A DNA stretch of 25,300 nucleotides. It comes from a virus. Both the position numbers and the translations under genes were made by a program. The DNA is taken from the IMG/VR virus record IMGVR_UViG_3300028364_000134, positions 1 to 25,300 of that record; one strand, written 5' to 3'. Position 1 is the stretch's first letter; each line of letters starts with the position of its first letter. Shown one piece after another: positions 4,222 to 21,737 of the stretch. The notes under the pieces are model-generated. The model was not told the DNA's origin. It worked only from the letters and a program-made list of their open reading frames with translations, and did not search any database.

Positions 4222-4632
4222 ATGTCTAAAAAATCTAATTACATCAGTACAAATCGCTCTAAACATTACTTAAAATGTCATTTAATCTTTGTCTGCAAGT
4301 ATCGTAAAAAGTTACTTATAGGTCAATTAAATAATGATATTAAACAAATATTTCAATCAATAGCTGATAATTCGGATTTTGAAATTGAGGTAATGGAGTC
4401 TGATATTGACCATATCCATTTCTTAATTCAATACATTCCTCGTTTGTCTGTTTCACAATTAGTTCGTAGGTTAAAACAAGAATCTACTCGTCAAATATGG
4501 TTGTTACACTCTACATCACTTCGTAAAGAATATTGGTACAAAGATATGTTTTGGAGTGATGGGTATTTCGTTTGTTCAATAGGTGAAGCATCACCTGATA
4601 CTATTCGTGAGTATATCCTTAATCAGGGTTAG
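4222..4632 (+). CDS. tnpA: TnpA, Y1 HUH transposase of IS200/IS605 family
   Basis: 136 residues, close to the usual 130-155. The metal-binding HUH motif is H64-I-H66 in DIDHIHFLI, and the nucleophilic tyrosine is Y131 in IREYILNQG near the C-terminus. The enzyme cuts and rejoins single-stranded DNA at the element's hairpin ends. The gene is divergent from tnpB, and its leader holds a strong inverted repeat. The stop is TAG. The protein seems intact and active. Confidence 0.95.
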   Translation: MSKKSNYISTNRSKHYLKCHLIFVCKYRKKLLIGQLNNDIKQIFQSIADNSDFEIEVMESDIDHIHFLIQYIPRLSVSQLVRRLKQESTRQIWLLHSTSLRKEYWYKDMFWSDGYFVCSIGEASPDTIREYILNQG

Positions 4633-6604: not shown

Positions 6605-6655
6605 TAACCTAGGTGAGATTCGAACTCACACGCCCTTTCGAGCATTGGTTTCTTA
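6605..6655 (-). pseudogene. 3' half of a tRNA-Leu-type gene
   Basis: Minus strand: TAAGAA-ACCAA (anticodon loop and 3' stem strand), a long variable arm GCTCGAAAGGGC, T-arm GTGAG-TTCGAAT-CTCAC and acceptor strand CTAGGTT-A. The 5' half is missing here; the HNH stop codon TAA lies in the anticodon loop. A matching 5' half stands at 7248-7273, beyond the HNH gene and another tRNA. Confidence 0.65.
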
Positions 6656-7102
6656 TTTATTATAGTTTCCTTTATTTTTACCAGAATTATTTTCTGTTAA
6701 TGAATGACAATTAGGACATAAAATCTGTAAATTAGTAAAATTATTGTTATATTTATTACCATCAATGTGGTGTAATTCTATAGGTATTAATTTACCCATC
6801 CACATATGTAAGTCACAATTTTCACATTTATGTTTTTTTACATTATCTTCTATTAACTTATTTTTTAATAAATTACTTTTAACACATGTTGACTTTGAAT
6901 ATTCTAGAGCTGTTTTTCTATCGTTACTAATTTTAATATTTTTACCACCTTTATTACCACCATAAATAATACCCATTTTATCTAAATAAGAATTTAATGT
7001 TTCTGGTTTACACTTTAATTCTCTACATATAAACGCTTTAGATTGATTAATATCAATCCACCCATTAATTTCATCTTTTCTTTCTAATATATCTATTCTC
7101 AT
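6653..7102 (-). CDS. HNH homing endonuclease
   Basis: With the start at 7102 (MRIDILERKDEING) the protein has 149 residues. A helix-turn-helix region (INQSKAFICRELKCKPETLNSYL) leads to a basic linker, a CENCD zinc pair and the HNH core ELHHIDGNKYNNNF...LCPNCHSLTENNSGKN. An ATG 21 bases further upstream is in frame, but the conserved motif GTATTTATTA lies between the two ATGs, which favours the inner start. The gene sits between the 5' and 3' halves of a tRNA-Leu, with its stop codon inside the anticodon loop, so it probably invaded that tRNA. Confidence 0.88.
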   Translation of the reverse strand: MRIDILERKDEINGWIDINQSKAFICRELKCKPETLNSYLDKMGIIYGGNKGGKNIKISNDRKTALEYSKSTCVKSNLLKNKLIEDNVKKHKCENCDLHMWMGKLIPIELHHIDGNKYNNNFTNLQILCPNCHSLTENNSGKNKGNYNK

Positions 7103-7156
7103 ATTAATAAATACGGTACACATTAATGAAAGGCTACTTTAGTGTATAATAATTTG

Positions 7157-10102: not shown

Positions 10103-10423
10103 ATGGGAATAGTATATTTATTAAGAGCTGATAACGGTGATTGTGATTTACATAAAATAGGAATCACAAAATATAGTAATGCCGATAAAAGATTGAAAAG
10201 TCTTAAAACAGGTAACGGTAACGAAATCACGGTTATAGAAACCTTTCAATCTAAATTTAACAATAAAATAGAACGTGCACTGCATAACAGATACGTAAAT
10301 AAACGGGCAAAGGGTGAATGGTTTGAACTAACCAATGAGGAAGTGAAATCATTCGTGGTTGATTGCCAAAAATTACACGATAACTTTCAATTATTGGTGA
10401 AATCTGGCAACCCCTTTATTTAA
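10103..10423 (+). CDS. T5orf172 / GIY-YIG-like domain protein
   Basis: 106 residues made of one domain. GIVYLLRAD followed by LHKIGITKYSNADKRLKSL corresponds to the GIY and YIG-like strands of the T5orf172/MUG113 family. It continues with IERALHNRY and GEWFELTNEEV, both typical of that family. Such proteins belong to the GIY-YIG nuclease superfamily; their role in phages is not settled. It is transcribed against its neighbours and its 3' end overlaps that of the nucleotidyltransferase gene by eight bases. Confidence 0.75.
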   Translation: MGIVYLLRADNGDCDLHKIGITKYSNADKRLKSLKTGNGNEITVIETFQSKFNNKIERALHNRYVNKRAKGEWFELTNEEVKSFVVDCQKLHDNFQLLVKSGNPFI

Positions 10424-18532: not shown

Positions 18533-19948
18533 TTATTTAAGACCCATTGCGGAGTCATTTATTTTAATACATTCTTCTAGTGAATTAGCTTCCGTTTTAT
18601 CGTCTCTTAGTTCAACCACTGATGGATGAAGTGTTGAGTAACCCCCATCACTATTTTGTGATAAACCACAACATCTGATTTCAACTATAGAACCTAATAA
18701 CTTATCTTGGTTATTAGTCACATATCTCATCATATCTTCTTTCATACCAGCTGGATTTGTAGCTAATTTACCACAAGAACTTTCAGCGATTAATGTTGAT
18801 ATAACATCTTCATTCTTACTACCTTTAGTTCCATACTTAAACCCAACGATTTTAAGGTCTAAATCAATATTTAGCTTCATTTTTATAGAAGTGTTAGGTT
18901 TACCGTTTTTCCAAGTCGCTGTTGGTGCTTTAAGGATAGTTCCTTCTTCACCTCTTAATAAAATTTCTTGAAAGTGAGTCATAGCTTCTTCATAAGAATA
19001 TACTTTCTTACATTCAACAACTGAAACCCTTGTACAATTATTGATTGGGGTTCTATTAAATATATAATCTAATCTATCTTTATATTGAATATCAGATTTT
19101 TTGTTGAAGTAATCATCTAAAGTGATTGAATCCCATATGGTATATCTTATTTTGTCAACCGCTTCTTTATAGTTACCATGTTTTTTAGTGAATGCCATTT
19201 TTTTCTTAGCGGTTTCAGCATCACTCCTACCATTAACTTTACCCCCGCCTTCAATATCAACTATTGAAGCAATGATACCATTACTTGTATATCGGTTCAT
19301 TATCGAACCATCATCATTTAACATTGTCAATTCACCATTTAATACTCCATCACCAAATTTAGATAATTCTTGCACTAAAACAGAATCTACTGGGATAAAT
19401 GTAGTTTCACCTTGTCTTGATTCAAATTCTACTTCCCCATTTTGGATTATAGCATTTGCGTACCTCCCATCCATTTTTATATCACTATAAGCGTAATCAC
19501 ATTTATTGAATATGTCTCTAACCAATTTATCACTAAATGATTTAGCACCTTGATATGGGGTACTCTCAATTAAATTTGGTATCACTTTATTTATGTTTGA
19601 TGTTCCCATACCAATCTTAAGGTCTTTCTCGATAATACGCTCGATAATATATGCATTATTAACACTTACGGAGGATAATAAATGAGATAAGAAACCTATC
19701 GCAGAGTAACCACTAACTTTTCTAGTATAAATATCACTTAAAGCTTCTAGTGCCGAATCTAACCCCATCTCACCTCTAGGTGTTTCATATTCTGGGATTT
19801 GCTTTAGATAAAACTTAATTTTCTTAGAACAAGCCATATAAATAACTTCCTTTAATAAATCGTTGTCCTTATACTTTCTAAGGATATCCATCTTGGCGTT
19901 ACTACCACCCTCGGTGGCAATTTCATCTAATATTTCTTTTACATTCAT
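18533..19948 (-). CDS. ATP-dependent DNA ligase
   Basis: 471 residues from MNVKEILDEI, whose ATG lies four bases after the RNA ligase stop; the longer start at 19990 would overlap that gene. An N-terminal helical domain (about 1-145) precedes the nucleotidyltransferase core. There K158 in SDIKMDGRY accepts AMP, ESRQGE and NGELTML are motifs Ia and III, EEGTILK is motif IV and SIKMKLNID is motif V. An OB-fold follows. Size and domain order fit T4 gp30-type ligases, which seal nicks in replication and repair. Confidence 0.93.
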   Translation of the reverse strand: MNVKEILDEIATEGGSNAKMDILRKYKDNDLLKEVIYMACSKKIKFYLKQIPEYETPRGEMGLDSALEALSDIYTRKVSGYSAIGFLSHLLSSVSVNNAYIIERIIEKDLKIGMGTSNINKVIPNLIESTPYQGAKSFSDKLVRDIFNKCDYAYSDIKMDGRYANAIIQNGEVEFESRQGETTFIPVDSVLVQELSKFGDGVLNGELTMLNDDGSIMNRYTSNGIIASIVDIEGGGKVNGRSDAETAKKKMAFTKKHGNYKEAVDKIRYTIWDSITLDDYFNKKSDIQYKDRLDYIFNRTPINNCTRVSVVECKKVYSYEEAMTHFQEILLRGEEGTILKAPTATWKNGKPNTSIKMKLNIDLDLKIVGFKYGTKGSKNEDVISTLIAESSCGKLATNPAGMKEDMMRYVTNNQDKLLGSIVEIRCCGLSQNSDGGYSTLHPSVVELRDDKTEANSLEECIKINDSAMGLK

Positions 19949-19952
19949 ATAT

Positions 19953-20930
19953 TTACAATTTTTCTTGTTCAAAAAAGTATTCCTTGGCAATGACAGAAAC
20001 TTTACCGCTAATATCCTTTGGTTCTAGACCAGCATCTACGATGATGTCTGAATCTTCATCCAATACATCCTTGATTACCATCTTGATGTAAGTACCAATA
20101 TGCTTACGTTCTATTTCAGTACCATTCTTAGTAGCTTCGTTGAACATTTGCTTAAGTCTCCAGATTGGAGTAACCTTATCGGCTACTTCATTAACTAGGG
20201 TAACCTTACCCTCATCAACTGGTCTTAGGGTCTTAACCTTTGAAACACCACAGTGTTTTTCACCCTTAGCTTTGAACAATAATCTATTATTCATAAAATC
20301 AGCAACAAAAACTAATCCTTCACCAATTCCACTAAAACCAAAATGTTTAGCCACTGGACACTCATTTTCAACCTCGTTAACAAGCTCTATAATTTTATTC
20401 TGGGCTATGTGTGGGTTTTCAAAGTCAATATCAATATCAAACGTTTTAAATTCATGAATATTCCAAATATCTTTAGATTCTGGAAATGTTAAATCGGAAA
20501 TATCGACCCAATATGATGTAAACTCTGGGTCCGATGGTTTAGATATCTTACACCCGAAAATATAAAATGCCTTATCAATTTCTGAAATTCCCACATTTTT
20601 TTGAATTCCCTTTCCAGCCCATTCACCATATATGGTAATTGTATGTTCAGATGTATCTACATTATATATTTCCTTAACAGCATTTATAATATTAAGAAAT
20701 AATTGTTCTTTTGATTTAACCAGAAAAGTAAACCCCATGTGTGATTCACCCTGGTCAAACCCAAAAGCGTTATTTCTTGATTGTGTATAAACACCATCGG
20801 AATCATTATAACTTACACCAGCGTTAGAATTGTGCACTAAAACCCCATTGGCAAAATAATTATGAAAACCCTCAACTTCTATATCATATGATGTTTCATT
20901 CTCAATTTTTTTAATTTCCCTTAATTTCAT
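19953..20930 (-). CDS. RNA ligase, C-terminal part, with N-terminal split-intein fragment
   Basis: 325 residues. Residues 1-34 are a C-intein (block F SYDIEVEGFHNYFANG, block G VLVHN). Ser35 is the +1 residue that takes part in splicing. From residue 35 the protein is the body of an Rnl2-type RNA ligase: SNAGV completes motif I, SRNNAF is motif Ia, YGEWAGKGIQ and AFYIFGCKI are motifs III/IIIa, EGLVF at about 204-208 is motif IV and LLFKAKGEKH is motif V. The catalytic lysine is missing here and is supplied by the gene at 21050-21499. The start is preceded by an AT-rich leader typical of this genome. Confidence 0.92.
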   Translation of the reverse strand: MKLREIKKIENETSYDIEVEGFHNYFANGVLVHNSNAGVSYNDSDGVYTQSRNNAFGFDQGESHMGFTFLVKSKEQLFLNIINAVKEIYNVDTSEHTITIYGEWAGKGIQKNVGISEIDKAFYIFGCKISKPSDPEFTSYWVDISDLTFPESKDIWNIHEFKTFDIDIDFENPHIAQNKIIELVNEVENECPVAKHFGFSGIGEGLVFVADFMNNRLLFKAKGEKHCGVSKVKTLRPVDEGKVTLVNEVADKVTPIWRLKQMFNEATKNGTEIERKHIGTYIKMVIKDVLDEDSDIIVDAGLEPKDISGKVSVIAKEYFFEQEKL

Positions 20931-20958
20931 TTTTATTTTTATTTAAAATTAATTTCAT
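20921..20958 (-). repeat. short direct repeat creating the second start codon
   Basis: The 14-mer TTAATTTCATTTTT at 20921-20934 recurs at 20949-20962, offset by 28 bases. On the minus strand this repeats ATGAAATTAA. The downstream copy is the start of the C-terminal ligase gene; the upstream copy is in the frame of the intein relic. Confidence 0.8.
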
Positions 20959-21049
20959 TTTTTTAGGTATCCAAAAATTAACGTCAGTAACATCAATTTT
21001 ATTTTTTTTAGTAATATTAATAAATTTAATAAAGTGTTCATGATACAAA

Positions 21050-21499
21050 TTATAGGGTTTTAAATTTGTCGGTAATTAACAAATCTTTAGCCATAATCCA
21101 ACCCCTATTATGAGTAAAAAATGTATGGTCTTCGGTACATTTTATCGTTCTATCATCAAAAATTAATTCAACCCATTTTTTATTATTGTCGAACTTAAAT
21201 GTGTTTGTTACACTACCACTATTTATTCTATTATTTTCAATGTCATATGTTAATACCACGTCACCCTTAGTTATTTCAGATATTTTTTTTTCCTCACCAT
21301 TAACTAACATAACCCCAGTATTTTTACTAAAACAACCATGAAGTTTTACCGTACCTTTAAATGTTATTGTTGGTTTTGATACATTTTCATTATAAATTGC
21401 ATCACCATTTTCATCTAAACCAACGAATGTAATCATTCTATTGACATTTGCTACGATGTTTCTAAATTGTAATGTTTTTGGATAACTAATGTGTTTCAT
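21050..21499 (-). CDS. RNA ligase, N-terminal part, with C-terminal split-intein fragment
   Basis: 149 residues. Residues 1-55 are the start of an RNA ligase, ending in FKGTVKLHG with the AMP-accepting K52. Residue 56 begins an N-intein: CFSKNTGVMLVNGEEKKISE with Cys1, GDVVLTYD of block A, then CTEDHTFFTHNRG with the block-B T..H. It stops after 94 intein residues, the usual place where split inteins are divided. Splicing with the gene at 19953-20930 would join KLHG to SNAGV and make a 346-residue ligase. The gene overlaps the P-loop gene upstream by 14 bases. Confidence 0.92.
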   Translation of the reverse strand: MKHISYPKTLQFRNIVANVNRMITFVGLDENGDAIYNENVSKPTITFKGTVKLHGCFSKNTGVMLVNGEEKKISEITKGDVVLTYDIENNRINSGSVTNTFKFDNNKKWVELIFDDRTIKCTEDHTFFTHNRGWIMAKDLLITDKFKTL

Positions 21500-21737
21500 A
21501 TTGTCTTATATTTTTTATGGCCTGAACCTCGTTAATAGTAATTTTTTTATTCATTAATCGAATTGATTCTTTTCTATCGATTAATCCCTTTGTGGTGGGT
21601 ATTGGTTCGTCATTATAACGAGTATCAATATTAAAACCCTCTTTAACTAACATTTCCTGAATCATTTGGATTATGGTGCTCTTACCACTGGCACTAAGGC
21701 CACATACATTTATGACTAGTTCTTCTCTATCTTTCAT
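21486..21737 (-). CDS. small P-loop protein (kinase-like)
   Basis: 83 residues with a Walker A motif, GLSASGKST at about residues 13-21, and an EGFNIDTRYNDEP strand. The length allows only the first third of a normal nucleotide kinase, so it is either a minimal phage P-loop protein or a fragment. It is first in the RNA ligase/DNA ligase operon and its 3' end overlaps the ligase N-gene, so a role in RNA end phosphorylation can be imagined but is not supported by a second motif. The promoter is at 21756-21786. Confidence 0.65.
   Translation of the reverse strand: MKDREELVINVCGLSASGKSTIIQMIQEMLVKEGFNIDTRYNDEPIPTTKGLIDRKESIRLMNKKITINEVQAIKNIRQYETH

What the first reader, a model, noticed from the sequence alone, without database searches (positions are those of the whole stretch)
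19953..21499. RNA ligase active site assembled by a naturally split intein
Two consecutive genes encode complementary parts of one Rnl2-type RNA ligase. The first ends with KLHG (catalytic K52) plus a 94-residue N-intein starting at Cys; the second starts with a 34-residue C-intein ending HN, followed by Ser and SNAGV. The insertion point lies inside nucleotidyl-transfer motif I, so neither half can form the adenylation site alone. Cys1, block-B T..H, His-Asn and +1 Ser are all present. Split inteins are known in phage genes, but I know of none described inside an RNA ligase. Ligation would require trans-splicing, which could delay or gate the enzyme.
Basis: partly seen in the sequence, partly recalled or inferred. 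Interest (0 to 1): 0.93.

Follow-up and report, generated by a model that had tools for sequence, protein, structure and literature searches.

The report
Phage RNA ligase with split intein
A phage gene for an RNA-repair enzyme is cut in two inside its active site, and each piece carries half of a self-splicing protein element (a split intein), so the enzyme probably has to be stitched together after translation; this is a new host gene for a selfish arrangement already known in phages.

Summary
The N-half (21050-21499, minus strand) is 55 aa of Rnl2-type RNA ligase ending ...TVKLHG plus a 94-aa N-intein. The C-half (19953-20930, minus) is a 34-aa C-intein ending HN, then Ser and the rest of the ligase. 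The cut lies in nucleotidyl-transfer motif I: Lys52 aligns with the adenylated lysine of T4 Rnl2. Two other contigs carry identical DNA here but differ by single bases elsewhere, so a frameshift artefact is unlikely. Eight lineages of viral contigs have an intein at this site; all seven readable to the second half are split, and five encode a Vsr-like endonuclease between the halves. This is the 'fractured gene' arrangement. The window's 119-bp spacer has no endonuclease gene, which was most likely lost. Mobility is supported by two alleles whose cassettes are 99.92% identical but whose ligases are 88-90% identical, and by a scattered distribution on the ligase tree. Inteins in RNA ligases are already in databases: cis inteins lie at the same residue in mycobacteriophages and at motif III in phage KLEP7. 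I found no report of a split one, but the key 2009 paper was not readable. Splicing itself is inferred. Nothing supports regulatory gating.

The parts
21335..21499 (-). N-extein: first 55 aa of Rnl2-type RNA ligase, ending TVKLHG; catalytic Lys52 codon at 21344-21346
   Evidence: Translation; alignment A1; the uninterrupted relative L010 aligns to T4 Rnl2 with this Lys at Lys35
21053..21334 (-). N-intein, 94 aa, Cys1 to KFKTL; block B TEDH; stop codon 21050-21052
   Evidence: Pfam PF14890 6.7e-10, TIGR01445 9.6e-6; N-inteins of seven other split-ligase loci are 32-55% identical to it
20931..21049 (-). 119-bp spacer, stops in all frames; five relative lineages have a 259-278-aa endonuclease gene here, the window has none
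   Evidence: no endonuclease match in the window
21034..21046 (-). GTATCATGAACAC element 3 nt after the N-half stop; near-same sequence follows the N-half stop, before the endonuclease gene, in four relative lineages
   Evidence: Only match in the 25.3-kb window at up to 1 mismatch, expected 0.28 on both strands; leaders listed
20911..20958 (-). 15-codon mini-ORF MKLILNKNKNEIKGN whose stop overlaps the C-half start by 20 nt, as the endonuclease stop does in L061; possible endonuclease C-terminal relic (weak)
   Evidence: similarity is partly due to the overlapping C-intein codons
20829..20930 (-). C-intein, 34 aa, MKLREIKK...FANGVLVHN
   Evidence: TIGR01443 3.4e-7; C-inteins of the other split ligases
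19956..20828 (-). C-extein: Ser+1 and the rest of the RNA ligase, 291 aa in all (SNAGV..., GEWAGKGIQK motif III region); stop 19953-19955
   Evidence: PHROG 548 RNA ligase 9e-35, TIGR02307 1.2e-6, 34-37% identical to phage RNA ligases in the best rows
18533..19948 (-). Context: ATP-dependent DNA ligase gene directly downstream, uninterrupted (motif I SDIKMDG)
   Evidence: PHROG 114 8.1e-101, Pfam DNA_ligase_A_M 6.1e-11
21486..21737 (-). Context: 83-aa P-loop ATPase-like ORF overlapping the N-half start by 14 nt
   Evidence: weak matches

Best explanation
This is a naturally split intein of the phage 'fractured gene' type, inserted directly after the Gly of KxHG in motif I of an Rnl2-type RNA ligase. 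The two genes are translated separately. The N-intein (94 aa) and C-intein (34 aa) associate, and the Cys1 / His-Asn / Ser+1 chemistry joins the 55-aa and 291-aa exteins into a 346-aa ligase with motif I restored as KLHGSNAGV (uninterrupted relatives have KLHGTNAGV). The arrangement spread as a mobile element: in relatives a Vsr/EDxHD-like homing endonuclease gene lies between the halves. The window's phage kept the split intein but has most likely lost that gene, leaving a 119-bp spacer. Shown: gene anatomy, conserved splicing residues, family-wide recurrence, presence/absence polymorphism, and a cassette far more conserved than its flanks in one pair. Inferred: trans-splicing, ligase activity after splicing, homing by the endonuclease, and its loss from the window lineage.
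For: Intein and ligase profile matches on both halves. Identical DNA in two more contigs with single-base differences elsewhere. A scan for GTVK[LIMF]HGC in IMG/VR gave eight ligase lineages on 19 contigs. Seven lineages are readable to the C-half and all seven are split; five of the seven carry a 259-278-aa endonuclease ORF between the halves. N-inteins are 94-98 aa and C-inteins 34 aa throughout, the canonical split position. L007 versus L062: cassette 1262/1263 identical, N-extein 89.7%, C-extein 88.3%. Ligase tree: the split state needs 5 changes, at least 4 forced by well-supported branches, and the window's sister L010 is uninterrupted. dN/dS of the window intein against three others is about 0.19-0.32, with dS near saturation. 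Endonuclease: Pfam MTES_1575 1.1e-7 and a conserved E[YF]NGDxxHCNP core. Loss elsewhere: L074 keeps an endonuclease C-terminal relic. Leader element kept in the window.
Against: No splicing was observed. The structure model of the N-half is poor (pLDDT 61.9), with only weak Hint/intein fold matches. Similarity of the window spacer to endonuclease loci is not significant by alignment shuffles (5' side 19/300, 3' side 74/300), so endonuclease loss rests on the leader element, on L074 and on distribution; an ancestral endonuclease-free state is not excluded. The endonuclease family call is below Pfam's cut-off, and the match to the mobile-intron endonuclease structure 3R3P is weak (E=0.11).
Confidence: 0.87

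Rival explanations
1. The two halves assemble without splicing, as in the Aeromonas phage Aeh1 NrdA 'genes in pieces', and the intein is dead.
For: Genes-in-pieces enzymes that work without splicing exist (Aeh1 NrdA, discussed in PMC3653736).
Against: Splicing residues are invariant over the lineages, the window intein is under purifying selection similar to its extein, and the cut separates the catalytic Lys from the rest of the active site by intein residues on both pieces.
Confidence: 0.05
2. The ligase is a pseudogene: a broken intein that no longer splices, with the phage relying on other repair genes.
For: The endonuclease gene is absent and the spacer looks degenerate.
Against: Both halves are open full-length frames, identical in three contigs, with all motifs present; dN/dS is well below 1; no second RNA ligase matches PF09414 in the 161-kb contig.
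Confidence: 0.05
3. It is an ordinary cis intein broken by sequencing or assembly frameshifts.
For: The spacer is A-rich with homopolymers and holds a third open frame.
Against: Three contigs that differ by single bases elsewhere agree exactly here; two frame changes would be needed; all seven readable lineages are split, five with a separate gene between the halves.
Confidence: 0.02
4. The split intein is a regulatory gate: trans-splicing times RNA repair during infection.
For: The cut is in the adenylation motif, so activity should depend on splicing; a conserved leader element follows the N-half stop.
Against: Related phages have uninterrupted ligases; near-identical cassettes move between ligase alleles; the same phage has several other split or cis inteins in unrelated genes, as expected of selfish elements.
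Confidence: 0.05

Closest known systems
Fractured genes with split inteins and Vsr-like homing endonucleases (Dassa et al. 2009, doi 10.1093/nar/gkp095; gp41-1, NrdJ-1, IMPDH-1 class)
   Same: Phage enzyme gene broken by a split intein, with a free-standing Vsr-like endonuclease gene between the halves in relatives; canonical split position and lengths; NrdJ-1 and gp41-1 are among the solved-structure matches to the N-intein.
   Different: Host gene is an RNA ligase (from memory the 2009 set was described as eight types of DNA synthesis and repair enzymes; the paper was not readable); insertion inside the catalytic motif; the window copy lacks the endonuclease gene.
Cis intein of mycobacteriophage cluster J RNA ligases (Phoebus gp158; also KashFlow, Bobby, Dallas, Beem, Hannaconda)
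   Same: Inserted at exactly the same residue, KLHG^C...HN^S, in an RNA ligase; N-intein region 35.5% identical to the window's.
   Different: One continuous protein with a LAGLIDADG endonuclease inside; ligase of another, actinophage group; the records annotate it as RNA ligase or HNH endonuclease, not as an intein.
Cis intein of Pseudaeromonas phage KLEP7 'intein-containing RNA ligase' (UNY40322.1)
   Same: Rnl2-like phage ligase interrupted by an intein.
   Different: Inserted at motif III (GEWAG^C...HN^SNIQK), cis, LAGLIDADG type; motif I intact. L009/L074 has both sites occupied.
T4 RNA ligase 2 (Rnl2; PDB 1S68, 2HVQ)
   Same: Motif I KIHGTN and the GE-AG-GIQK stretch align with the uninterrupted relative L010; catalytic Lys35 corresponds to Lys52 here.
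   Different: Uninterrupted single gene.

Membership tests
Naturally split inteins | N-intein beginning with Cys/Ser and block-B TxxH on one protein | tested here: met
   C56 and T122-x-x-H125, invariant in 8 loci; profile matches
Naturally split inteins | C-intein with terminal His-Asn and +1 Ser/Thr/Cys on a separate protein | tested here: met
   VHN then S35 in a separate ORF
Naturally split inteins | Protein trans-splicing | not testable with these tools
   Needs expression and mass spectrometry
Rnl2-type RNA ligase | Sequence relationship to Rnl2 and motif I K-x-H/D-G | tested here: met
   PHROG 548 9e-35; TIGR02307 1.2e-6, far below that model's full-length cut-off; motif alignment to T4 Rnl2
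Rnl2-type RNA ligase | RNA-sealing activity | not testable with these tools
   Needs an assay
Fractured gene (split intein plus free-standing endonuclease) | Enzyme gene broken by a split intein | tested here: met
Fractured gene (split intein plus free-standing endonuclease) | Free-standing endonuclease gene between the halves | tested here: not met
   Absent from the window; present in five of seven readable lineages, so the window copy is best called a derivative of such a locus
Vsr/EDxHD homing endonucleases (for the relatives' gene) | Vsr-like nuclease core | tested here: inconclusive
   Pfam MTES_1575 1.1e-7, below the cut-off; conserved E[YF]NGDxxHCNP core; best solved structure 3R3P, E=0.11

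The most novel reading that the evidence does not exclude
A split intein sitting in the adenylation motif of an RNA-repair ligase has lost its endonuclease and been kept as a post-translational switch, so that the phage's RNA repair turns on only after trans-splicing.
Probability: 0.06. Interest if true: 0.75.

Novelty: new member of a known kind. Interest (0 to 1): 0.5.

Why it matters
It extends fractured genes to an RNA-repair enzyme and shows one family at several stages: empty site, split intein with endonuclease, decayed endonuclease (L074) and no endonuclease (window). Inteins at the same motif I residue in two different ligase groups, cis in mycobacteriophages and split here, suggest that ligase catalytic motifs are repeated intein targets. 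The seven readable split pairs are also candidate new trans-splicing reagents.

Tried and rejected
Frameshifted cis intein: rejected because three contigs agree and the relatives are split too. Endonuclease scar by plain DNA or protein similarity: not significant on the DNA, and the protein signal is confounded by the overlapping C-intein codons; only the 13-bp leader element stands out, and it was chosen after seeing the leaders. AlphaFold models of the halves: low confidence, little used. A first structure search used an N-extein typed loosely; only its intein part is used. Search of bacterial and archaeal genome contigs for the same motif: 12 hits, none a ligase. Full-text searches for an RNA ligase with a split intein found none; the 2009 fractured-gene paper is not held.

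Full report
What is there. On the minus strand, 21499-21050 encodes 149 aa: 55 aa of RNA ligase ending FKGTVKLHG, then CFSKNTGV... for 94 aa, then a stop. After 119 bp with stops in all frames, 20930-19953 encodes 325 aa: a 34-aa segment ending FANGVLVHN, then SNAGV.... The N-half matches Pfam Intein_splicing (6.7e-10) and NCBIfam intein_Nterm (9.6e-6). The C-half matches intein_Cterm (3.4e-7), the Rnl2 model TIGR02307 (1.2e-6) and PHROG 548 'RNA ligase' (9e-35). An uninterrupted relative (L010) aligns with T4 Rnl2 so that the Lys of KxHG falls on the adenylated Lys35 (the numbering of T4 Rnl2 is my own knowledge).

Is it an artefact? Two other IMG/VR contigs, one of 161 kb, carry identical DNA over the whole region and differ from the window by 1 and 3 bases elsewhere. 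A frameshifted cis intein would need two frame changes shared by all three.

Relatives. A scan of IMG/VR for GTVK[LIMF]HG followed by Cys found eight lineages of ligase on 19 contigs (window type, L061, L007/L062, L064, L066, L074, L077, L076). Seven can be read to the C-half and all seven are split, with N-inteins of 94-98 aa and C-inteins of 34 aa; L076 is cut off by the end of the stretch. Five of the seven (L061, L007/L062, L064, L066, L077) have an ORF of 259-278 aa between the halves, on the same strand, its stop overlapping the start of the C-half. L074 has a 42-residue relic of the same protein's C-terminus, and the window has none. The ORF resembles Vsr-like endonucleases: Pfam MTES_1575 at 1.1e-7 (below cut-off), a conserved E[YF]NGDxxHCNP core, and the mobile-intron endonuclease structure 3R3P as best but weak solved match. 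This is the fractured-gene arrangement of Dassa et al. 2009, known to me from memory and from citing papers; the paper itself is not held.

Mobility. L007 and L062 come from related phages. Their cassette from Cys1 to the end of the C-intein differs at 1 of 1263 positions, while the N-extein is 89.7% and the C-extein 88.3% identical. The flanks are mosaic, so part of the contrast could come from recombination of the exteins, but it fits recent movement of the cassette. On a tree of 39 ligases the split state needs five changes, at least four forced by well-supported branches; the window's sister L010 is uninterrupted. Several rows have long branches, so the exact count is soft.

The window's spacer. 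Plain similarity of the 119 bp to endonuclease loci is not above shuffles. However, GTATCATGAACAC, 3 nt after the N-half stop, is the only place in the window within one mismatch of GTTTCATGAANAC, an element that follows the N-half stop in L007, L061, L066 and L077 with small variations. Expected matches in the whole window are 0.28. I chose the pattern after seeing the leaders, so this is supporting rather than decisive. Endonuclease loss is the likeliest history; an ancestral endonuclease-free form is not excluded.

Is the intein maintained? Codon comparison of the window intein with three others gives dN/dS of about 0.19-0.32, close to or below the exteins' values, though dS is near saturation. 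The splicing residues are invariant in the loci compared, except that L064 has Thr at +1. Splicing was not tested.

What is known. Inteins in RNA ligases are already in public records. Six cluster J mycobacteriophage ligases have a cis LAGLIDADG intein at exactly KLHG^, in an actinophage ligase, with 35.5% identity to the window's N-intein region; many related phages match only outside the intein. KLEP7's is annotated and lies at motif III; L074 also has a cis intein there. I found no report of a split intein in an RNA ligase. The finding is a new member of the fractured-gene kind in a new host gene.

Gating. The 161-kb contig that shares the window's DNA also carries split or cis inteins in a DnaB-type helicase, NrdA, an SbcC/gp46-type ATPase and an SNF2-type helicase (gene names by reading the sequences, not by profile). 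That fits selfish spread. I see no evidence for a regulatory role.

Noticed in passing
L105 (G001:43500-53500), L106 (85500-91500), L107 (6500-12500): The 161-kb contig IMGVR_UViG_3300012269_000002 has several other inteins: a DnaB-type helicase split with a Vsr-like endonuclease gene between, NrdA with a cis and at least one split intein (GIY-YIG-like gene between), an SbcC/gp46-type ATPase split at Walker A, and an SNF2-type helicase with a cis intein.
   Followed up: partly
L074:4560-5966 (= L009): One ligase with two inteins: split at motif I and cis at motif III (GEWCG^C...HD^SGVQK), the latter at the site used in KLEP7.
   Followed up: partly
window:13603-14901(-); L014, L019 downstream of the ligase: Phage protein with a PARP catalytic domain (Pfam 7.8e-20); by eye preceded by a WGR-like stretch, and a similar gene lies near the RNA ligase in L014 and L019.
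   Followed up: partly
window:2903-4105(-) and 4222-4632(+): IS200/IS605-type element: TnpB-like OrfB (8.7e-31) and Y1 transposase (6.9e-35) in a phage contig.
   Followed up: no
window:260-892, 1561-2064, 6653-7123, 10103-10423: Many endonuclease-like genes: GIY-YIG/NUMOD3, HNH (two, weak), T5orf172/MUG113.
   Followed up: no
window:11569-12207(-): Collagen-like repeat protein (Pfam Collagen 2.8e-9).
   Followed up: no
leaders after the N-half stop in L066, L077, L007, L061 and window:21034-21046: Conserved element GTTTCATGAA(A)AC, a perfect 12-bp palindrome GTTTCATGAAAC in L066 and L077; role unknown.
   Followed up: partly
L058:1141-3954: Salicola phage SCTP-2 hypothetical protein gp4 has an intein-like segment (CVTGDTFVTLEDGS...IVHN^C) in what looks like a tail or fibre protein.
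   Followed up: no
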